Source: Gemmatimonadota bacterium (GTDB lineage Bacteria; Gemmatimonadota; Gemmatimonadetes; Gemmatimonadales; Gemmatimonadaceae). Taken from it: a stretch of DNA of 64,000 nt. Location of the stretch: the NCBI GenBank assembly GCA_003134685.1, contig PLCA01000003.1:631537-695536 (forward strand), in the 5' to 3' direction. Below, one piece after another: positions 9,555 through 31,745 of this stretch; position 1 is the stretch's first letter, and the number at the start of each line of letters is the position of its first letter. The position numbers and the translations under genes are program-made. The notes below the pieces were generated by a model. The model did not search any database. It saw only the letters and a program-made list of their open reading frames with translations, and was not told the origin of the DNA.

Positions 9555-10804
9555 TCAATTCAACTCGCGCACAACGCCCGCCCCGTCACCCGACCGTTGC
9601 GGCCCCCGAATCATCAGTGCATGGATGTCCCCCTCGTCGAGCAGCTTCTTGCGATCCGCCAGATCCTTGAACCGCGCGAACAGCAGGGTCAGCTCGTCGT
9701 CAGTCAGCTCGTAGCCGAGGGCCTCCGTTTTCGCCCGCAGCGCATGACGTCCGGAGTGCTTGCCGAGCACGAGGCCGACGCCATCCCATCCCACCGTCTC
9801 GGCGCTCATGATCTCGTAGGTGAGACGGTTCTTGAGCACGCCGTCCTGGTGGATGCCGGCCTCATGGGCAAACGCGTTGGCGCCGACGATCGCCTTGTTT
9901 GGTGGAACATCGATGCCTGTGCACGCCGAAACGAGACGCGAGCTGCGCGCGAGCTCGCGCGTTTCGATATTCGTGTGAAGCTCGAAGAATGAGCGGCGCG
10001 TGTGCAACGCCATCACGAACTCCTCCAGTGCAGCGTTTCCGGCGCGCTCACCGATGCCGTTGATGGTGCACTCCACCTGACGCGCTCCGGCACGCGCCGC
10101 GGCGAGCGAATTGGCCACCGCCAGGCCGAGATCGTCGTGGCAGTGGGCTGACACCGTCGCGCGCTCAATGCCCGGGACGTTCGCGCGAACCCCTGCTACC
10201 AGGGCGCCGTATTCGTCTGGAGTGGAGTAGCCCACCGTGTCCGGCACGTTGAGCGTCGTCGCTCCGCAGTCGAGGGCGGCGCCGAGAACCTCGTACAGGA
10301 ACGGAGGGTCGGTGCGCGCCGAATCCTCCGCGGAGAACTCGACCTGGGCGCCGAGCGAGCAGGCATGAGAGACCGCCGTCGCCACCGCCGCGACAACCTG
10401 CGCTCGCGTCATCCCCAACTTGTGTTTCATGTGAAGGTCGGATGTGGCGAGGAAGATATGTATCCGGGCGTTGGCCGCCGGCTCCACTGCCGTCCAGCAG
10501 AGATCGATGTCGCGCTCATTGGCGCGCGCCAGTCCACAGATGTCGGGACCGTAGACTCCACCGACTTCGCGAGCAATCTGGTTCACGGCGGTCCAGTCGC
10601 CTTCCGATGCCGCCGGAAATCCCGCCTCGATCACATCGACCCTGAGGCGCGCGAGCTGATGTGCAACCGACAGCTTCTCCTCGAGCGTCATCGTGCATCC
10701 GGGAGCTTGCTCACCGTCGCGGAGGGTGGTGTCGAAAATCCGGACGCGACCGTCGTCGCGCGATTGACCGGCGTCCCCTCCTTCGGTCCCTGCCGGCACC
10801 GGCG

Positions 10805-10808
<4 letters not shown>
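9555..10808 (-). CDS. leuA: 2-isopropylmalate synthase lacking the leucine regulatory domain
   Basis: Condenses acetyl-CoA with 2-oxoisovalerate, the first committed step of leucine synthesis. The HMGL-like TIM barrel is intact: '[16 protein letters not shown]' (about residues 24-39), '[15 protein letters not shown]' with metal-binding His residues, '[14 protein letters not shown]', and the linker motif '[10 protein letters not shown]'. The protein stops at residue 417 shortly after 'DEGDIHALM', whereas typical LeuA continues for another ~100 residues with the leucine-binding dimer domain. The gap to the next gene is only 84 bp, so no detached domain follows. It overlaps ilvC by 4 bp and is last in the ilv operon. 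Related condensing enzymes such as citramalate synthase are possible but less likely here. Confidence 0.85.
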
Positions 10809-15876: not shown

Positions 15877-15915
15877 TACGGTTTTCCCATAGTCGGCGGT
15901 TGCATGAGAGACATG

Positions 15916-15961
15916 AAAAAGCGAAGGGCCTCTTCCCGTGAATTGGGGAGAGGCCCTTCGC
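15916..15961 (-). terminator. ilv operon attenuator terminator
   Basis: On the minus strand a 12-bp perfect stem (GCGAAGGGCCTC with GAGGCCCTTCGC, extended inward by CCC/GGG pairs) is followed directly by TTTTTC. It lies between the leader peptide and ilvD, so it would stop transcription before the operon. Its two arms share sequence with the preceding hairpin at 15972-15997, which allows alternative pairing. Confidence 0.85.
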
Positions 15962-15971
15962 TACCACCGAG

Positions 15972-15997
15972 CGCCTCTCCCGTTGCGGGAAGAGGCG
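15972..15997 (-). promoter_or_regulatory. Alternative hairpin of the ilv attenuator
   Basis: On the minus strand CGCCTCTTCCCG and CGGGAGAGGCG form a stem (one bulged base) around a 3-nt loop, right after the leader peptide stop. The first arm is perfectly complementary over 11 nt to the 3' arm of the terminator, and the second arm over 9 nt to its 5' arm. The segment GGGAAGAG at 16030-16037 inside the peptide gene can also pair with the first arm. These mutually exclusive pairings are what an attenuator needs; which state is the antiterminator is not settled. Confidence 0.75.
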
Positions 15998-16007
15998 TTT
16001 GTCTGCG

Positions 16008-16109
16008 TTACATCGCTGCTAGACCAGTTCTCTTCCCAAAGCCGATAAGCCCTACCCCAATAAGGAGGAGGGACAGAATAAGGCTGAGAAGGAGCTGGCT
16101 GCGGATCAT
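16008..16109 (-). CDS. ilvL: ilv leader peptide
   Basis: A 33-codon reading frame from ATG to TAA between the ilv promoter and attenuator. Residues 6-22 read LLLSLILSLLLIGVGLI; in total 10 Leu, 4 Ile and 1 Val, nearly half of the peptide. The arrangement (regulated amino acids, stop codon, competing hairpins, terminator, first structural gene) is that of the enterobacterial ilvL leader, though the sequence is not obviously related. No strong ribosome binding site is seen. The frame is open upstream to the predicted transcription start but without a start codon. Confidence 0.85.
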   Translation of the reverse strand: MIRSQLLLSLILSLLLIGVGLIGFGKRTGLAAM

Positions 16110-16155
16110 GATCTTGGTAATGGCGTTTGTGCGAATGTGAAATCGATCTCGGGGC

Positions 16156-16185
16156 AGCATAACTCAGGTTCGACAAGTCTGTCAA
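16156..16185 (-). promoter_or_regulatory. Sigma70-type promoter of the ilv operon
   Basis: On the minus strand TTGACA (16185-16180) is separated by 18 bp from TATGCT (16161-16156). Transcription would start near 16149, about 40 nt before the leader peptide ATG. It is the only good match upstream of the leader. Confidence 0.7.
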
Positions 16186-18979: not shown

Positions 18980-20239
18980 ATGTTGCAGCGAATATTTGGA
19001 GTCGCTCGCGTGAAGGTCCCACCGTCGAGAGCCGGCCCATCGGGCTGGACCCTCCTGGGGGGAGCGATGCTCGCGCTGTCTGTTGCAACCATCGGTCAGG
19101 AGGCGAAGGCGCAAGCCGCCCAGTTAGTTGCCACTGCTCCTTCGCGCGCCGATTCCGGCAAGGCGCCTGCAGACAACAAAGACTCCACCGCCAAGGCTGC
19201 CGCGGCACTTCCCAAATGGTTCGACGACCTCGCGGTCAACGCCTTCGTCTCCAGCGCCTACGAGTACAACGGCAACCGTCCCACGAACGGCGCGAGCAGC
19301 TACCGCGTCTTCGACTTCAACGACAACTCCTTCAACCTCGACGTCGCCGAGCTGGTGGTGCAGATCGCGGCCTCCAAGCCGAACGACGCCGGCTTTCGCG
19401 TTGATTTTGACGCGGGCAACTCGATCCCGCAAATCACGAAGACACAGGACCAGACCGCCGCGCAGTTCGACCTGAAGCAGGCGTTCGCGAGCTATATCGC
19501 GCCACTCGGTTCCGGCCTGCGCTTCGATGTTGGGAAGTTCGTCACGCACCTGGGCTACGAGGTAATCGAGGGATACGACGGCTACAACGACAACTACAGC
19601 CGGTCGATCCTCTTCGGCTACGCCATTCCATTCACGCACACGGGAGTCAAGGCGAGCTACGCCTTCTCGAGCAAGGTCGCCGGGATGGTCGAGGTGGTGA
19701 ATGGGTGGGACCTCCTGCGCGACAATAACCGCTCGAAGTCTGTCGGAGCCCAGCTCACCCTGACACCGGTCGCGCCGCTCCAAGTGCTGCTTAACTGGAT
19801 CGGGGGGCCGGAGCTCGCGAACAACAACCACTCGAACCGCAACGTGTTCGACCTGGTGGCCATCTTCAAGCCAACCAGCACGCTGACGCTCGGCGCGAAC
19901 GGCGACTACGGGAAGGAGAACGGCACGAGCCTTGTGAATCCCGGATCCGACGCGACGTGGAAGGGCATCGCCGGCTACGCCACGCTCGCGCTGACGAACA
20001 AGTTCTCCGTCGCGCTACGCGGCGAGACGTTTCACGACGAGGATGGTGTGCGACTTGGAACGGGCACCAGGGCGACGCTGTCGGAAGGGACGTTCACGCC
20101 AACATTCAAGTTCACCGATCACGTCCTGCTCCGGGGAGAGGCGCGCTACGACAAGGCGAACCAACCGATCCTTACCAAGCGGGGCACGCTCGCCGACACG
20201 CAAACCACCGTCGCGGGTAACGTCATATTCGTGTACTGA
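18980..20239 (+). CDS. Outer-membrane beta-barrel porin (BBP2/OmpL-like)
   Basis: A 419-residue protein with an N-terminal signal region (hydrophobic part about residues 22-45, ending 'KAQAAQ'), an Ala/Lys-rich linker, then a barrel of alternating strands from 'VNAFVSSAYEYNGN'. 'FNLDVAELVVQIAASKPN' and 'FRVDFDAG' are typical of the putative beta-barrel porin-2 family. It ends in 'NVIFVY', an aromatic C-terminus suited to the BAM machinery. A ribosome site (AAGGAGG) lies 10 nt before the ATG. Position after amt suggests a role in uptake of small nitrogen compounds, which is inference. Confidence 0.75.
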   Translation: MLQRIFGVARVKVPPSRAGPSGWTLLGGAMLALSVATIGQEAKAQAAQLVATAPSRADSGKAPADNKDSTAKAAAALPKWFDDLAVNAFVSSAYEYNGNRPTNGASSYRVFDFNDNSFNLDVAELVVQIAASKPNDAGFRVDFDAGNSIPQITKTQDQTAAQFDLKQAFASYIAPLGSGLRFDVGKFVTHLGYEVIEGYDGYNDNYSRSILFGYAIPFTHTGVKASYAFSSKVAGMVEVVNGWDLLRDNNRSKSVGAQLTLTPVAPLQVLLNWIGGPELANNNHSNRNVFDLVAIFKPTSTLTLGANGDYGKENGTSLVNPGSDATWKGIAGYATLALTNKFSVALRGETFHDEDGVRLGTGTRATLSEGTFTPTFKFTDHVLLRGEARYDKANQPILTKRGTLADTQTTVAGNVIFVY

Positions 20240-20245
20240 CAACTC

Positions 20246-20611
20246 AACTGAATGGGATCCGAGATCTTAACTGCAACTGAACGGGATCCGAGATCTTAAC
20301 TGCAAACTGAACGGGATCCGAGATCTGACAACTGCAAACTGAACGGGATCCGAGATCTGAGAGGCATAGATCTCAGGGGCTAGTCACCGCGCTCCGACCG
20401 TATCCGGCGCGTATCCTGGTACAACCGACCGCCTCTACCAATACGCCACTGAGATACGTCGAAAGCGCAGTTACTAAACTCTGGTATCTGCGCTTCTCAG
20501 ATCTCGGATCCCGTTCAGTTTATGTCATTGACGGAAGCACGAACGTCTGCAGTTTCCAGATCTCGGCTCCCGTTCAGTTTGCAGTTTCCAGATCTCGGAT
20601 CCCGTTCAGTT
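20246..20611. repeat. Array of 22-bp repeats in direct and inverted orientation
   Basis: The core GAACGGGATCCGAGATCT (preceded by AACT or similar) occurs four times on the plus strand at 20246-20267, 20275-20296, 20305-20326 and 20337-20358, with 29-32 bp periodicity, and three times inverted at 20499-20520, 20558-20579 and 20590-20611. Individual copies differ by one base. The two groups enclose about 140 bp without a gene. It fills the space between the convergent porin and leuB genes and could form a large cruciform or a bidirectional terminator-like structure. A related copy is inside gltB. Confidence 0.85.
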
Positions 20612-20629
20612 TTCAGTTCTGTTACTTCA

Positions 20630-21754
20630 CTACGCCGACACTGCGTTGGCGAGTGCCGCCGCGATCGCGCGGCCTACCTCTACGGTCGAGTACGAGCGTG
20701 CTCCGGCCGGCGCAATGTCGGTGGTAACAAAGCCCTCATCGATTGTCGCGGCGACGGCTTGCTCGACCGCGCGAGCCTCCTGCTCCAGACCGAATGAATG
20801 TCTGAGCATCAGCGCCACGCTGAGAATGGTGCCTATGGGATTCGCGATCCCGCGGCCGGCGATGTCTGGAGCGGAGCCGTGGATCGGCTCGTATAGTCCG
20901 CGCCGCACGCGCGGACGCTCCCCATCTTGCGCCGCATTGTCGTCGCCCAGCGAAGCCGACGGAAGCACGCCCAACGACCCGGCCAGCATCGATGCCTCGT
21001 CGGTGAGGATGTCGCCGAACATGTTCTCCGTGACGATCACATCGAAGCTCCGCGGATCTCTCAGTAGCTGCATCGCGCAGGCGTCCACCAGCAGATGGTC
21101 GAGCGCCACATCAGGAAACTCCTCGCGCAACACGCGAGTGACGGTCGATCTCCAGAGCCGCGAAGTCTCGAGCACGTTCGCCTTGTCCACGGATGTCAGC
21201 TTGCGCCGCCGGGTACGCGCGAGCTGCGCCGCTACCCGCGTCACGCGCTCGATCTCGACAGTTGTGTAGACGCACTCGTCGACCGCCCGCTCGCCGCCGG
21301 GCACTTGTTCGCGACGCTTGTCACCAAAATAGATGCCGCCCGTGAGCTCGCGCACGACTACGAAGTCCACCCCTTCCAATCGTTCGGCGCGTAGGGGCGA
21401 TGCAGCCGCGAGGGATGGATGCACGGTCACCGGTCGCAGGTTGGCGTACACCTGCAGCTCCCGCCGCAGCCCGAGTAGACCCTGCTCGGGCCGCTGACGT
21501 GCGTCGGGATTATCCCAGCGCGGGCCACCGACCGCGCCGAGCAGAACGGCATCCGCGGCTCGGCAAAGCTCGAGTGTTTCAGGCGGTAGAGGAGTTCCTC
21601 GCGCATCGAGCGCGCAGCCACCGATCAATCCCTCGCGAAATTCGATCGCATGATCCCACCGCTCGGCCACCGCGCGGATCACGCGGACGCCTTCGGCCAC
21701 TACCTCCGGGCCGATCCCGTCGCCCGGCAGCAGCGCAATCGTCAGCGCGTGCAC
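20630..21754 (-). CDS. leuB: 3-isopropylmalate dehydrogenase
   Basis: NAD-dependent oxidative decarboxylation in leucine synthesis. With the GTG start at 21754 the protein has 374 residues beginning [18 protein letters not shown], as usual for IPMDH. Other signatures are '[16 protein letters not shown]', '[16 protein letters not shown]', '[18 protein letters not shown]' and '[19 protein letters not shown]'. In-frame sequence further upstream is antisense-like and rejected. It overlaps leuD by 13 bp and ends the his-leu superoperon beside the repeat array. Confidence 0.92.
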
Positions 21755-22347
21755 ACGTGGGCGGTATGCGTCGACTCGTAAGCGGCGATCGCGGCGTCCT
21801 GTTCGAGGAGGAACCCGAGCTCGTCGACGCCGTTCAGCAGACAATGTCGGGCGAACGGATCCACGGCGAAAGCGTGCGCCGTTCCATCCGGCAGTGTCGC
21901 GGTTTGCGACTCGAGATCAATTGTCACCGGCGCGCGCGGTGATTCCGCGAGCTGCTCCAGCAGCGTGGCGTGCGCGGACGTCGAAAGAGCGACGGGAAGC
22001 AGCCCCGTCTTGAGTGCGTTGTTCCGGAAAATATCGGCGAAGCCGGTGCTGATGACGGCTCGAAAACCGAAATCGAGCAGCGCCCAGGGCGCGTGCTCGC
22101 GGGATGAGCCGCAGCCGAAGTTGTCTCCGGCGACGAGGATCGCCGCACCTACCGCGTCGGGAGAATTGAGCGGGAAGTCGGGGCGCGGCTGCCCCTGCTC
22201 GTCCAGGCGCCAGTCGGCGAACAGATGCGCGCCCAGTCCGCGGCGCTCAATCGTCTTCAGAAAGCGCGCCGGAATGATCTGGTCGGTATCGACGTTCGCA
22301 GCGTGCAGCACCACGCACGATGACGTGAGCGAGGTAAGTGGCTTCAT
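21742..22347 (-). CDS. leuD: 3-isopropylmalate dehydratase small subunit
   Basis: The swivelling subunit of isopropylmalate isomerase. '[16 protein letters not shown]' and the signature '[16 protein letters not shown]' are present. The ATG at 22347 (MKPLTSL) gives 201 residues and lies 10 bp after the leuC stop. It works as a heterodimer with LeuC. Confidence 0.93.
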
Positions 22348-22357
22348 GGAATCGTCG

Positions 22358-23773
22358 TCACGAAAGGGTCCGCACATCGGCGATGGCGCCGGCCACTGCC
22401 GTCGCAGCCGCGGTGAGCGGGCTGGCGAGAAATGTCCTGCCTCCCTTGCCCTGACGCCCCTCGAAATTGCGATTGCTCGTGCTCACGGCGCTCTGGCCGG
22501 GCGCGAGCTGATCTCCGTTCATTGCTATACACATCGAGCAGCCTGCTTCCCGCCATTCCGCGCCCGCGTCCAGGAAAACGCGATCCAGCCCCTCGGCTTC
22601 AGCTTCGCGTTTGACGTTGCGTGAGCCGGGAACGACGAGCATCCGTACGCCAGCCGCGACGCGCCGTCCCCGCATCACCGCCGCCGCCTCTCGTAGGTCG
22701 GAGATTCGGGAATTGGTGCAGCTTCCCACGAACACGACATCGACCGCATGTCCAAGAAGAGACTGTCCCGGCTCGAGCGCCATGTAGCGAAGGGCCTTGT
22801 CGAGATCGACGCGCTCAGGAGCGCTGGCCGCCTCGCTGGGATTGGGGACATGCCCATCGATCGGGATCGCCATCGACGGGTTGGTACCAAAGGTGATCAT
22901 CGGTGCGAGGCTCGCGGCCTCGAGGCGAACAGAGCGATCGTAGGATGCGCCTTCGTCGCTCGCGAGCTGATTCCAGCGGGCAAGCGCCGCGCCCCAGTCC
23001 GCGCCGGCGGGAGCGAACGGACGGCCAGCGATGTACTCGAACGTAGTCTCGTCGGGCGCGATGAGACCGGCGCGGGCGCCCGCCTCGATGGACATGTTGC
23101 AAATCGTCATTCGCTCTTCCATGCCGAGCGAGCGAATGGCAGAGCCGCTGTACTCCAAAACGTTGCCGGTGGCGCCACCGATGCCGATCTTCGCGATCAC
23201 GGCGAGGATTATGTCCTTTGCTGTAACGCCGCGAGGAAGCACTCCGTCAATGCGAAGCTCCATGTTGCGCGGCTTGCGCTGCAGCAACGTCTGAGTAGCC
23301 AGAACATAGCCCACCTCCGACGTGCCGATCCCAAATGCCAGCGCCCCGAACGCTCCGTGGGTACTCGTGTGGCTGTCGCCGCACACTATGGTCATGCCCG
23401 GTTGCGTGAGACCCTGTTCGGGACCAATCACGTGGACGATTCCCTGGCGGGTATCATCCAGGCCGAAGAGTTCTATTCCGAATTCCTCGCAATTGGTCTC
23501 GAGCTGCGCGAGCTGTGCCGAGGCCTGAACGTCCAGGACCTGGAGACGACCTGCCGAGCGGGGCGTGGTCGGCGTCGAGTGATCCATCGTCGCCAACGTA
23601 AGATCCGGACGTCTGACCCGGACACCGCGATTGCGCAGCTCGGCGAACGCCTGTGGCGATGTCACCTCGTGCACGAGGTGGAGGTCGACATAGAGGACGG
23701 CCGGGGTGCTCTCGGTCTCGGGGCGAACGAGGTGAGCATCCCAGATTTTGTCGACCAGGGTTTTCGGAGTCAT
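22358..23773 (-). CDS. leuC: 3-isopropylmalate dehydratase large subunit
   Basis: Aconitase-type catalytic subunit with a [4Fe-4S] cluster. The ATG at 23773 gives 471 residues beginning [16 protein letters not shown]. Cluster cysteines lie in '[17 protein letters not shown]' and '[16 protein letters not shown]'. '[20 protein letters not shown]' is also diagnostic. It is 121 bp downstream of hisIE, the only sizeable gap in the his-leu block; no convincing internal promoter or terminator is seen there. Confidence 0.95.
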
Positions 23774-23894
23774 CGGGCTTTTGTGATCATGATTTCTTTG
23801 ATCGCTTCTCTCAATTATTCGTACTCGGTCAGGATTACGCCATGCCTTCCCAGAAAACAGCGCTGCTGTCCGCTCCCCAACGGCGATGTTTCCC

Positions 23895-29083: not shown

Positions 29084-30393
29084 GGAGCGGTCCAGCCGAG
29101 CGCGGCGGCAGCGTGCGAGGGCAGACCCTCAGCATTGGCGAGAACGGCGGCGTCCGCTGCGAGACGCTGGGCAGCCGCTCGAGTCACTTTCTGGTACGAC
29201 GTCCAGCGAACGAAGTCGAGCAGCCCGAGTCCGGAGTAACTGCGCGCCAGCCCGCCGGTTGGCAGAACGTGATTGCCGCCGGTTATGTAGTCACCGAACA
29301 CGACCGACGACTGCTCGCCGACGAACACACAGCCCGCGTTCCGGATGTCGGGTAGCAGGCGCTCCGCATCGTCGAGCGCCAACATTAGGTGCTCGGGGGC
29401 AAAATCGGCCGCGAACTCGACTGCCTCGGCGATTGAATCGGCTCGGAGCAGGGCACCCCTCTGCTCCAGCGCACCGCGAGCGACTTCAGCGCGTGGCGCG
29501 TCCGGCAGGCTTTGCTCGATGGCGCTACCGATCGACAATGCTGTCTCGTCATCGAGACAAACGACGACAACGCAAGCGTCCACATCGTGCTCCGCCTGCG
29601 CGACGACTTCGCGGGCGATTGCGCGGGCGTCGCAGCCTGCATCGCAAATCACCAACAGCTCGCTCGGCCCCGCCGGAGAGTCGATCCCCACATCCCTGCT
29701 GACCTGAAGCTTCGCCTCGGCTACGTATGCGTTTCCCGGCCCGACGATTCTGTCGACGCGCGGAACGCTCTCGGTGCCGTACGCCATTGCCGCGATCGCG
29801 CCGGCACCACCCAGGGAGAACACCCGATTCACTCCTGCGATTTCGCACGCGGCAAGCACGACCGCCGCCGGGTACCCGTCTCTTTGCGGCGGAGAGCAGA
29901 GAATGATTTCGGAAACACCGGCGGCGCGCGCGGGAATTCCCGCCATCAGGACGCTGCTCGCGTACGCGGCGCGCCCGCCCGGCGAGTAGATCCCCACTCG
30001 CCGCAATGGATCGGGCCGCCGGCCGACCGTCACACCCGGCTCGGTCTCGACTTCCACCGTCTGTGGCGGAGCCGCGGAGTGAACCGTCTCGATGTTGCGC
30101 GCCGCACGTTCGAGCGCGGATCGGAGCCGCGGATCAATCTGCGCGAGCGCACCTCGTCGAACGCCGCTTGGTACCTCGAGGGCCGTGAGCGCCACTTCGT
30201 CGTACCTGCGCGCCATCTCGCGCAGTGCACGGTCGCCATCCACACGCACGCGGCGCACTATCTCCTCAGTCGTCTCGCGCACGAGCCAGTTCGTCACGCC
30301 CGTTCTGCGCAGGACGGAAGCGCGCTCGTCCGCGGATAACGCGATTAAAGCGCCCGTGTATCTCCAGCCCGTTTTCTGGATCGTCTGGATCAC
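29077..30393 (-). CDS. hisD: Histidinol dehydrogenase
   Basis: Zinc- and NAD-dependent enzyme for the last two steps of histidine synthesis, 438 residues from a GTG start. Signatures are 'VGIYSPGGRAAYASSVLMAG', 'VDRIVGPGNAYVAEAKLQV', 'GIDSPAGPSELLVICD' and 'NAGCVFVGEQSSVVFGDYIT' with the catalytic 'APEHL' (FAPEHLML). Overlaps hisG by 4 bp. Confidence 0.95.
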   Translation of the reverse strand: MIQTIQKTGWRYTGALIALSADERASVLRRTGVTNWLVRETTEEIVRRVRVDGDRALREMARRYDEVALTALEVPSGVRRGALAQIDPRLRSALERAARNIETVHSAAPPQTVEVETEPGVTVGRRPDPLRRVGIYSPGGRAAYASSVLMAGIPARAAGVSEIILCSPPQRDGYPAAVVLAACEIAGVNRVFSLGGAGAIAAMAYGTESVPRVDRIVGPGNAYVAEAKLQVSRDVGIDSPAGPSELLVICDAGCDARAIAREVVAQAEHDVDACVVVVCLDDETALSIGSAIEQSLPDAPRAEVARGALEQRGALLRADSIAEAVEFAADFAPEHLMLALDDAERLLPDIRNAGCVFVGEQSSVVFGDYITGGNHVLPTGGLARSYSGLGLLDFVRWTSYQKVTRAAAQRLAADAAVLANAEGLPSHAAAALGWTAPC

Positions 30394-31253
30394 GGCATCA
30401 GGCGCTCCACCCGCGTGACGAGAATCCCACTGGCATCGAGTGCCTTGAGCGCGCCCATCGTTTTGTAGACGGTCGCCGCATCGACTACTGCGTGCACCGC
30501 GACACGGTCACCACCGTTCAGGATGTCGATCACGGTCGGACCGTTGATGCCGGGAATGATCTGCTTGACGGCGTCGAGCGACCGGCGGGGTACGTTCGCC
30601 ATCAGGTACCTCTTGCCGCGCGCTCTCACGACCGAATCGAGCGCCAAGATGAGCGAGTCGAGCGCCTCGTTTTTGGCCCGCTCGAAAACGGTGTCGCATC
30701 TCGTGACGAGCTGTGCACGTGAGGTGAGGAGCGTGCCGATCTCGCGCAGGCCGTTGACCCTGAGCGTCGAGCCAGTCGACGTGATATCGACAATGATCTC
30801 GGCGATGCCGAGGAGCGGCGCGATCTCTGCCGCGCCCGATATGGGCACGATTTCGACACCCTGGCTGCGCGCCTGAAAGAACTCCCGCGTGATGTTCGGG
30901 AAGGAAGTCGCGACACGGGTGCCGACTGCGATGTCGTCGACTGTCCTGAGGGCGCTGTCCTCGCGCGCGGCTGCGATCAGGCGGCATTCTCCGAAGCCGA
31001 GATCCAGTCGCCGCTCGACCGGCCGTCCCGATTCACAGACGAGATCCCAGCCGGTGACCCCGACATCGGCCACGCCGTCGGCAACAAACTCCGGTATGTC
31101 CTGCGCGCGGACGAATAGCGCTTCGAATTCTCCGCCGAGCGATGCGGAGAGCGCGCGATCGCCCTTCGTGAGTACCGGGAGTCCGGCATCTCCGAAGAGC
31201 TCGCGCGTATCGTCGGCGAGGCGTCCCTTGTTTGGCAGTGCGATCTTGAGCAT
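30390..31253 (-). CDS. hisG: ATP phosphoribosyltransferase, long (HisG-L) form
   Basis: First enzyme of the histidine pathway, 287 residues. Catalytic part has 'LKIALPNKGRLADDTRELFG' and 'GVTGWDLVCESG'. The C-terminal ~75 residues ('GINGPTVIDILNGGDRVAVH' onward) form the ACT-like allosteric domain, so this is the self-regulated long form that does not need HisZ. It is the first gene of the superoperon, 240 bp after the start of the his leader peptide. Confidence 0.95.
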   Translation of the reverse strand: MLKIALPNKGRLADDTRELFGDAGLPVLTKGDRALSASLGGEFEALFVRAQDIPEFVADGVADVGVTGWDLVCESGRPVERRLDLGFGECRLIAAAREDSALRTVDDIAVGTRVATSFPNITREFFQARSQGVEIVPISGAAEIAPLLGIAEIIVDITSTGSTLRVNGLREIGTLLTSRAQLVTRCDTVFERAKNEALDSLILALDSVVRARGKRYLMANVPRRSLDAVKQIIPGINGPTVIDILNGGDRVAVHAVVDAATVYKTMGALKALDASGILVTRVERLMP

Positions 31254-31272
31254 GAGATGATTGGCGGAAAGG

Positions 31273-31352
31273 AAAAAGCCCGTCAGTAGATGAGTTGTCT
31301 AAAACGAAAAAGCCCGTCAGTAGATGAGTGGTCTAAAACGAAAAAGCCCGTC
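31273..31352. repeat. 34-bp tandem repeat carrying extra terminator 3' arms
   Basis: Two full 34-bp units at 31273-31306 and 31307-31340 differ at one base; the first 12 bp recur at 31341-31352, where they form the 3' arm and T-run of the his terminator. On the his transcript each unit reads GACGGGCTTTTTCG, a copy of the terminator's 3' arm plus U-tract. The single 5' arm could pair with any of three 3' arms. Origin by local duplication of the terminator half is the simplest reading. Confidence 0.8.
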
Positions 31353-31369
31353 CAGGAATGGGACGGGCT
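31341..31369 (-). terminator. his operon attenuator terminator
   Basis: Minus-strand stem AGCCCGTCC / GGACGGGCT (9 bp, 7-nt loop) followed by TTTTTCG. It lies between the His-rich leader peptide and hisG. Two more copies of the 3' arm and U-tract follow at once in the tandem repeat. Confidence 0.85.
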
Positions 31370-31403
31370 GCGGAAGCTCTGTTAGTGGAGTCTGACTAGT
31401 CGA

Positions 31404-31493
31404 CTATAGTCTGACGTGCACGCGCAAGAGCGCCCCGCGGCCCGTGAGGCCGTGGTGGCTGTGCGCATGGCGAAGTGAAGTGAACGTGGTCAT
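31404..31493 (-). CDS. hisL: his leader peptide
   Basis: A 29-codon frame (ATG to TAG) upstream of hisG. Residues 8-15 read RHAHSHHG and another His follows at 26, giving five His in 29 residues. Codons 17-18 (ACG GGC, 31440-31445) are complementary to GCCCGT of the terminator 5' arm, so a ribosome stalled on the His codons would leave this segment free to block the terminator. The start codon lies 7 nt after a -10-like TAGGAT, so the mRNA is probably leaderless. Confidence 0.85.
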   Translation of the reverse strand: MTTFTSLRHAHSHHGLTGRGALLRVHVRL

Positions 31494-31500
31494 TGATTCA

Positions 31501-31529
31501 ATCCTAAACGCATCACGCGGGGAGCGCAA
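31501..31529 (-). promoter_or_regulatory. his operon promoter
   Basis: Minus strand TTGCGC (31529-31524), 17-bp spacer, TAGGAT (31506-31501). The -10 ends 7 nt before the leader peptide ATG. The -35 matches only in TTG, but spacing and position repeat those of the aro and phe leader promoters. Confidence 0.5.
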
Positions 31530-31563: not shown

Positions 31564-31592
31564 TTTACTTTTCCCGATTCGGGTTCTAGCTT
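31564..31592 (+). promoter_or_regulatory. aro (DAHP synthase) leader promoter
   Basis: TTTACT (31564-31569), 17-bp spacer, TAGCTT (31587-31592), then 7 nt (GCCCCAC) to the leader ATG. The phe leader at 61805 has the same TTTACT, spacer length and -10 to start-codon distance. It is divergent from the his promoter about 35 bp away. Confidence 0.55.
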
Positions 31593-31599
31593 GCCCCAC

Positions 31600-31683
31600 A
31601 TGTCCAGCTTCTGGTTTAGCGCGAACTATTACTACGTCTTCTTCGGTTACGACCGACGGGGGCCCGAGTCGCGCGTGCGGTAA
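31600..31683 (+). CDS. Aromatic leader peptide of the DAHP synthase gene
   Basis: A 27-codon frame (ATG to TAA). It begins MSSFWF and has YYYVFFGY at residues 10-17: nine aromatic residues in total (four Phe, four Tyr, one Trp). The following codons 20-22 (GGGGGCCC at 31658-31665) copy the terminator's 3' arm and can pair with its 5' arm. Stalling at Phe/Tyr codons upstream would expose this segment and prevent termination. It is paralogous to the leader at 61841. Confidence 0.88.
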   Translation: MSSFWFSANYYYVFFGYDRRGPESRVR

Positions 31684-31715
31684 AGTTCCAGGTTCGACAA
31701 CGCAGACAGACTACG

Positions 31716-31745
31716 GGCCTCCGCAATCGCGGGGGCCTTTTTGTT
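31716..31745 (+). terminator. aro attenuator terminator
   Basis: Stem GGCCTCCGC / GCGGGGGCC (9 bp with one U-G pair, loop AATC) followed by TTTTTGTTTC. It lies between the aromatic leader peptide and the DAHP synthase start, 55 bp before the ATG. Confidence 0.85.

What the first reader, a model, noticed from the sequence alone, without database searches (positions are those of the whole stretch)
31254..31529. His leader peptide and attenuator controlling a his-leu superoperon
A 29-codon peptide with RHAHSHHG precedes a perfect terminator and hisG. ACGGGC right after the His codons can pair with the terminator 5' arm. Because leuCDB follows hisIE without a clear terminator, histidine supply may also set leucine enzyme levels.
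Basis: partly seen in the sequence, partly recalled or inferred. Interest (0 to 1): 0.7.

Follow-up and report, generated by a model that had tools for sequence, protein, structure and literature searches.

The report
Histidine-sensing attenuator before hisG operon
A soil bacterium of the phylum Gemmatimonadota carries, in front of its histidine genes, a short histidine-rich reading frame and an RNA switch that very probably turn the genes on only when histidine runs low; the switch is shared by its whole group and by myxobacteria, but whether it also sets the leucine genes that happen to follow in this species is unproven.

Summary
A 29-codon frame (31493-31404, minus strand; MTTFTSLRHAHSHHGLTGRGALLRVHVRL) is followed by a perfect 9-bp intrinsic terminator (31369-31345) and hisG. 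90 of 92 hisG upstream regions from Gemmatimonadota, Myxococcota and Eisenbacteria carry such a His-rich frame (1 on the reverse strand, 0.4 after shuffling). The RNA arms are conserved too: the His codons and the frame's tail form a hairpin that holds the arm ACGGGYCG, which otherwise pairs with the terminator's 5' arm GGCCCGT. Ribosome-masking folds behave like E. coli hisL. The frame starts 5-10 nt after a conserved -10 box, so it is probably leaderless. It is not in Rfam and I found no report of it. It is a classical ribosome-mediated his attenuator in a new phylum, with the antiterminator arm inside the leader frame. The his-leu 'superoperon' is only partly supported: the adjacency is real but occurs only here and in one 96%-identical genome; a third close relative keeps just a leuC stub. 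The 121-nt gap is the only large gap in the gene run, and a missing terminator means nothing because hisIE lacks a strong one in all 49 relatives checked. leuA sits elsewhere behind its own Leu/Ile/Val leader.

The parts
31501..31529 (-). Promoter of the leader: TTGCGC-17-TAGGAT
   Evidence: best site upstream of the leader, 3.9 with a matrix from 75 relatives' his promoters (window and its near-identical loci left out); relatives have TTGACG-17/18-TAGNNT at the same place. The window's copy is a weaker match (7/12).
31404..31493 (-). His leader frame, MTTFTSLRHAHSHHGLTGRGALLRVHVRL*, probably leaderless (ATG 7 nt after the -10 box)
   Evidence: conserved His run followed by GPTGRG in about 90 loci.
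31462..31469 (-). Arm A, CATGCGCA (His-Ala-His codons), pairs with arm B
   Evidence: Minimum-energy fold; A:B complementarity mean z -2.0 over 90 leaders.
31446..31451 (-). Arm C, GGCCTC, right after the last His codon, pairs with D
   Evidence: 94% of cells paired, with a GC-to-AU double change and GC/GU variants.
31427..31445 (-). Arm D, ACGGGC-C-GCGGGG-C-GCTCT, antiterminator 5' strand, inside the leader frame
   Evidence: Pairs with 31380-31363 in the predicted pre-terminator fold; D:E z below -1 in 85 of 90 leaders.
31419..31427 (-). Arm B, TTGCGCGTG, tail of the leader frame
31361..31380 (-). Arm E, AGAGCTTCCGCAGCCCGTCC, shared by antiterminator and terminator
31345..31353 (-). Arm F, GGACGGGCT, followed by a T tract: intrinsic terminator
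   Evidence: 9 perfect pairs; E:F covariation.
31272..31344 (-). T tract and two further tandem copies of the F arm plus T tract (GACGGGCTTTTTC at 31318-31306 and 31284-31272), period 34
   Evidence: three copies also in L031, one copy in L002/L032 and L033.
30390..31253 (-). hisG, first gene of hisG-D-C-H-A-B-F-N-IE
   Evidence: NCBIfam TIGR00070 and TIGR03455 over cut-off.
23774..23894 (-). 121-nt hisIE-leuC gap: weak 5-bp hairpin, a 9/12 sigma-70-like match (23814-23786), no lineage-type promoter
20630..23773 (-). leuC, leuD, leuB: possible but unproven read-through targets
   Evidence: dN/dS 0.07-0.10 against L031, so under selection.

Best explanation
It is a ribosome-mediated transcription attenuator of the his operon. 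RNA polymerase starts a few bases upstream of the leader ATG and a ribosome loads at the 5' end (inferred). With enough charged His-tRNA the ribosome runs through the His codons and the tail of the frame. Behind it A:B and C:D form one long hairpin that sequesters D, E pairs with F, and transcription ends before hisG. With little charged His-tRNA the ribosome stalls on the His codons and covers A and, for stalls late in the run, C as well. D then pairs with E as soon as E is transcribed, F is left unpaired, and hisG-D-C-H-A-B-F-N-IE is transcribed. The sequence elements and their conservation are shown; the switch in living cells is inferred. Transcripts that pass the attenuator may run on through the 121-nt gap into leuCDB (possible, about even odds); this would be a recent, lineage-specific side effect rather than a conserved his-leu regulon.
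For: His-rich leader frame in 90 of 92 upstream regions against 1 and 0.4 in controls, and a His-rich frame before hisG even in family members whose HisG is only 32-34% identical. D:E complementarity stronger than shuffled in 85 of 90 leaders, mean z -2.1. C:D plus E:F: 96.5% of cells paired, 15 double-change cells against 2.8 in shuffles, 0/500. D:E 92% paired in register against at most 46% when slid. Ribosome masking: P(D:E) about 0.75 for stalls in most of the His run, 0 just downstream, 0.4 without a ribosome; E. coli hisL by the same method gives 0.36-0.71 on its His codons and 0.14 without a ribosome. Conserved promoter placed 5-10 nt before the leader ATG.
Against: No expression data. 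With the ribosome at the stop codon, equilibrium folding still gives P(D:E) of about 0.6 in the window, so termination must rely on kinetics. The covariation test for D:E alone is only marginal against shuffles (43/500 on the covariation score), because the core hardly varies. The window's promoter is a weaker match than most relatives'. C and D lie in codons, so peptide constraint cannot be fully separated from RNA constraint.
Confidence: 0.92

Rival explanations
1. The attenuator governs his only; leuCDB is transcribed from its own promoter in the 121-nt gap and histidine supply does not matter for leucine enzymes.
For: The gap is the only one over about 10 nt in twelve genes that otherwise overlap or abut. 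A generic sigma-70 match TTGAGA-17-CATGAT (9/12) ends 12 nt before the leuC ATG, and the last 60 nt of the gap hardly differ among three genomes while the first 60 carry most changes. leuA is regulated elsewhere.
Against: The lineage-specific promoter matrix scores the gap at chance level (0.9 against about 14 for typical his promoters). Promoter-like matches in the whole region equal the shuffled expectation.
Confidence: 0.45
2. A true his-leu superoperon: the his attenuator sets leuCDB levels as an evolved link between the two pathways.
For: Co-directional adjacency, only a weak 5-bp hairpin in the gap (-4.9 kcal/mol in the two near relatives), intact leu genes under purifying selection.
Against: Present only in the window and L031; L032 keeps a leuC stub of about 46 nt and its genome lacks leuA as well; L033, L034 and the other loci have other genes after hisIE. 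In family members leuCDB normally follows a leuA-type gene.
Confidence: 0.3
3. The His-rich frame is incidental and the terminator simply ends an antisense or upstream transcript.
For: Many mechanical frames in this G+C-rich window are spurious, and the neighbouring gene is divergent, so a short unrelated transcript could exist.
Against: Deep conservation of His codons, arms and promoter on this strand.
Confidence: 0.02
4. A His T-box or a protein-controlled attenuator rather than a ribosome-controlled one.
For: T-boxes and the repressor HisR control his genes in other phyla (PMC9413887).
Against: No Rfam match at gathering threshold in the window, and in eight related loci only an unrelated TPP riboswitch; no T-box even at E up to 5; the conserved His codons would have no role.
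Confidence: 0.02

Closest known systems
hisL attenuator of Escherichia coli and Salmonella (Rfam RF00514 His_leader)
   Same: Run of His codons in a short leader frame, alternative antiterminator and terminator, same position before hisG, similar response in the same masking calculation.
   Different: No Rfam match. In E. coli the frame ends in the loop before arm B and far before the antiterminator arm, and has a normal 5' leader; here the frame runs through A, C, D and B, the stop lies beyond the switch hairpin, and the frame is probably leaderless.
Leaderless leader-peptide attenuators: Sinorhizobium meliloti trpL (PMC7298713) and Streptomyces lividans trpL, leuL, ilvL (PMC8079986)
   Same: Leader frame begins at or next to the transcription start and senses an amino acid.
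   Different: Other amino acids and other phyla; arm sequences were not compared.
His leader attenuators proposed in Firmicutes: his operon of the Bacillus cereus group and others (PMC9413887), hisS/hisZ leaders (PMC2965389)
   Same: Predicted His leader peptides with terminator and antiterminator outside Proteobacteria.
   Different: Firmicutes, described there as confined to certain taxa; no ACGGGYCG/GGCCCGT core was reported in the passages read.

Membership tests
Ribosome-mediated amino acid attenuator (hisL-like in mechanism) | Leader frame with clustered codons for the regulated amino acid | tested here: met
Ribosome-mediated amino acid attenuator (hisL-like in mechanism) | Intrinsic terminator between leader frame and first structural gene | tested here: met
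   found in all 90 leaders analysed
Ribosome-mediated amino acid attenuator (hisL-like in mechanism) | Antiterminator that shares the terminator 5' arm and is favoured by a ribosome stalled on the regulatory codons | tested here: met
   By prediction only:
Ribosome-mediated amino acid attenuator (hisL-like in mechanism) | Transcription read-through rises when charged His-tRNA is scarce | not testable with these tools
   Needs an experiment
Rfam RF00514 His_leader | Match to the covariance model | tested here: not met
   No match in the window or in eight related loci at gathering score, nor among matches up to E 5 at the locus
T-box riboswitch | Match to the T-box model | tested here: not met
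his-leu superoperon | Co-directional adjacency without a strong terminator | tested here: met
   uninformative because relatives also lack terminators after hisIE
his-leu superoperon | No independent promoter before leuC | tested here: inconclusive
his-leu superoperon | Arrangement conserved in relatives | tested here: not met
   Only L031; L032 has a stub; 49 of 50 fetched loci with sequence beyond hisIE have no leu gene there

The most novel reading that the evidence does not exclude
Gemmatimonadota and neighbours use one attenuator chassis: a leaderless leader frame whose own tail encodes both the protecting hairpin and the antiterminator arm (ACGGGYC pairing with GGCCCGT), with interchangeable sensor codons (His before hisG; Tyr/Phe before DAHP synthase and a phenylalanine hydroxylase-like gene). 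In this genus the His version was rewired by gene movement to drive leuCDB as well.
Probability: 0.3. Interest if true: 0.6.

Novelty: new member of a known kind. Interest (0 to 1): 0.42.

Why it matters
It extends histidine attenuation, described mainly from Proteobacteria and some Firmicutes, to Gemmatimonadota, Myxococcota and Eisenbacteria, with a model that can be used to annotate them. It shows a layout in which the leader frame covers the whole switch hairpin, and a switch core that seems to be shared with aromatic leaders. It also warns against reading gene adjacency as regulation: the leu genes behind his are a recent, unstable arrangement.

Tried and rejected
Promoter in the his-leu gap by lineage matrix: chance level. 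Terminator after hisIE as a test of read-through: useless because a strong one is absent in all relatives. MAFFT columns for A:B: spacing varies, so A:B was tested by duplex energies instead. Two of the weaker model hits that were fetched (L194, L196) have no leader and are spurious. Literature on leader peptides in Gemmatimonadota or on a myxobacterial his leader: nothing found in the held library; subscription papers such as Lopatovskaya et al. 2010 (cited in PMC4833913) could not be read, so an earlier description cannot be excluded.

Full report
What is there. The window lies on a contig of a Gemmatimonadaceae genome (G000:C5:631537-695536; the nearest named relatives are Gemmatimonadetes MAGs). 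On the minus strand a frame of 29 codons, MTTFTSLRHAHSHHGLTGRGALLRVHVRL, runs from 31493 to 31404. A perfect 9-bp stem with a T tract follows at 31369-31345, and hisG starts at 31253. The genes hisG-D-C-H-A-B-F-N-IE overlap or abut; leuC, leuD, leuB follow 121 nt after hisIE.

Is it more than chance? Among 92 distinct hisG upstream regions from Gemmatimonadota, Myxococcota and Eisenbacteria, 90 have a short frame with at least four His in eight codons. The reverse strand gives 1, shuffles 0.4, and random 330-nt stretches 31 of 2000. The two exceptions (L015 with masked bases, L103 on a truncated contig) show the motif by eye. The sequences are related, so these are not 90 independent events. 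Three family members with a very different HisG (32-34% identity) also have such frames: MLRTTARHHHVHHGFQARGGMRAV, MRIRDRHHRHHHHPETGGRLVV and MQIAGRHHVHHHHPSRDGLMAFSG.

The RNA arms. The leaders share this layout: His codons, GGCCC-N3-GGGYCG, CGCGTG, stop, 23-43 nt, GGCCCGTCC-loop-GGACGGGCC, T tract. Arm D (ACGGGYCG, within the codons of GPTGRG) is complementary to arm E, the terminator 5' arm: 85 of 90 leaders beat shuffles by more than one standard deviation, mean z -2.1. Pair counting on 53 leaders gives 96.5% paired cells and 15 double-change cells for C:D plus E:F against 2.8 in shuffles, 0 of 500 reaching it. D:E is 92% paired in register and at most 46% when slid, though its covariation score is only marginal against shuffles (43 of 500) because the core hardly varies. 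A:B, the His codons against the tail of the frame, has mean z -2.0. In the window the full fold gives the A:B plus C:D hairpin next to the terminator; when F is not yet made the best fold is D:E, three blocks of pairs between 31445-31427 and 31380-31363.

Mechanism. When ribosome footprints are masked, P(D:E) before F is made averages about 0.75 for stalls in most of the His run, falls to 0 when the ribosome sits just downstream, and is 0.4 without a ribosome. E. coli hisL treated the same way gives 0.36-0.71 on its His codons and 0.14 without a ribosome, so the calculation recovers a known case. Equilibrium folding of the complete leader favours the terminator in every state, so the decision must be kinetic; timing between ribosome and polymerase is the accepted basis of such switches (PMC1183508). 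The conserved promoter TTGACG-17/18-TAGNNT ends 5-10 nt before the leader ATG in most loci, so the frame is probably leaderless; leaderless attenuator peptides are known from S. meliloti and Streptomyces. What differs from hisL is the layout: the frame runs through all arms of the protecting hairpin, D included, and stops about 34 nt before E, whereas in E. coli hisL the frame stops before arm B.

The leu part. Of 50 fetched loci with hisIE and more than 1.2 kb beyond it only L031 has leuCDB there. L032, 97% identical to the window over the his operon, keeps the gap and about the first 46 nt of leuC and then an unrelated gene. The genome with the same locus (G037) has no clear LeuC and no LeuA-type protein, which fits loss of leucine synthesis (it is 93% complete). 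L033 and L034, more distant, have other genes. In other family members leuCDB directly follows a leuA-type gene. In the window leuA is the last gene of an ilvD...ilvC-leuA run at 15876-9555, behind a leader MIRSQLLLSLILSLLLIGVGLIGFGKRTGLAAM and a strong hairpin. Thus the entry step to leucine has a branched-chain leader, whatever happens to leuCDB. The missing terminator is not evidence for read-through: none of 49 loci has a hairpin terminator stronger than -10 kcal/mol within 150 nt after hisIE. The gap has no lineage-type promoter but a generic 9/12 match close to leuC. Read-through is plausible, not shown; I give about even odds that it contributes, and 0.3 that it is a meaningful regulatory link.

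Tandem arms. The F arm with its T tract is present three times at a 34-nt period (31352-31272) in the window and in L031, once in L002/L032 and L033. Extra copies could give RNA polymerase a second and third chance to terminate, or be neutral; nothing here decides.

Known or new. No Rfam family matches, and the held literature has no report for Gemmatimonadota or for a myxobacterial his leader. A covariance model (R1) found the element in 65 of 150 genomes of the phylum at E of 0.001 or better. Weaker second hits were mixed. Of seven fetched, five carry Tyr/Phe-rich leaders with a similar ACGGG/CCCGT core: four before DAHP synthase (L190, L191, L193, L195; L191 judged by eye from the start of the gene) and one before a phenylalanine hydroxylase-like gene (L192). 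The other two (L194, L196) are spurious. D:E beat shuffles clearly in three of these five (z -2.0 to -2.4), weakly in L191 (-1.3) and not in L192 (-0.2). This suggests a shared chassis with exchangeable sensor codons, but it was not tested systematically.

Verdict. A real, conserved His attenuator, ordinary in principle and new for its phylum as far as I could find; the superoperon claim is downgraded to a lineage-specific possibility.

Noticed in passing
window 31564-31745 (+): Divergent aromatic attenuator: promoter TTTACT-17-TAGCTT (13.8 with the his matrix), probably leaderless frame 31600-31683 MSSFWFSANYYYVFFGYDRRGPESRVR, hairpin 31715-31738, then DAHP synthase. D:E complementarity z -4.7. 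The two attenuators stand back to back.
   Followed up: partly
window 15911-16185 (-): Third attenuator: TTGACA-18-TATGCT, leader 16109-16008 MIRSQLLLSLILSLLLIGVGLIGFGKRTGLAAM, strong hairpin and T tract before ilvD; the run continues to ilvC and leuA.
   Followed up: partly
window 31272-31352 (-): Terminator 3' arm plus T tract triplicated in tandem (34-nt period), shared with L031 only.
   Followed up: partly
window 9555-10808 (-): LeuA of 417 aa matches only positions up to about 383 of the 494- to 516-position models, so it lacks the C-terminal domain that usually mediates leucine feedback.
   Followed up: no
window 20240-20620: Several copies in both orientations of AACTGAACGGGATCCGAGATCT between the convergent ends of leuB and the plus-strand gene 18980-20239.
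   Followed up: no
L192 (G099:C18:322300-323900): Tyr-containing leader MPRTAAGLTTAYASYYAPPDTGRGPRRVRA and terminator before a phenylalanine 4-hydroxylase-like gene, named from its sequence by eye.
   Followed up: no
Gemmatimonadaceae, 118 genomes: Only 22 of 118 genomes have a clear LeuC; the rest give aconitase-type matches or none, so leucine synthesis looks patchy in the family.
   Followed up: no
L032 7700-8900: leuC stub of about 46 nt followed by an unrelated frame of about 236 aa, apparently the scar of a leuCDB deletion.
   Followed up: yes
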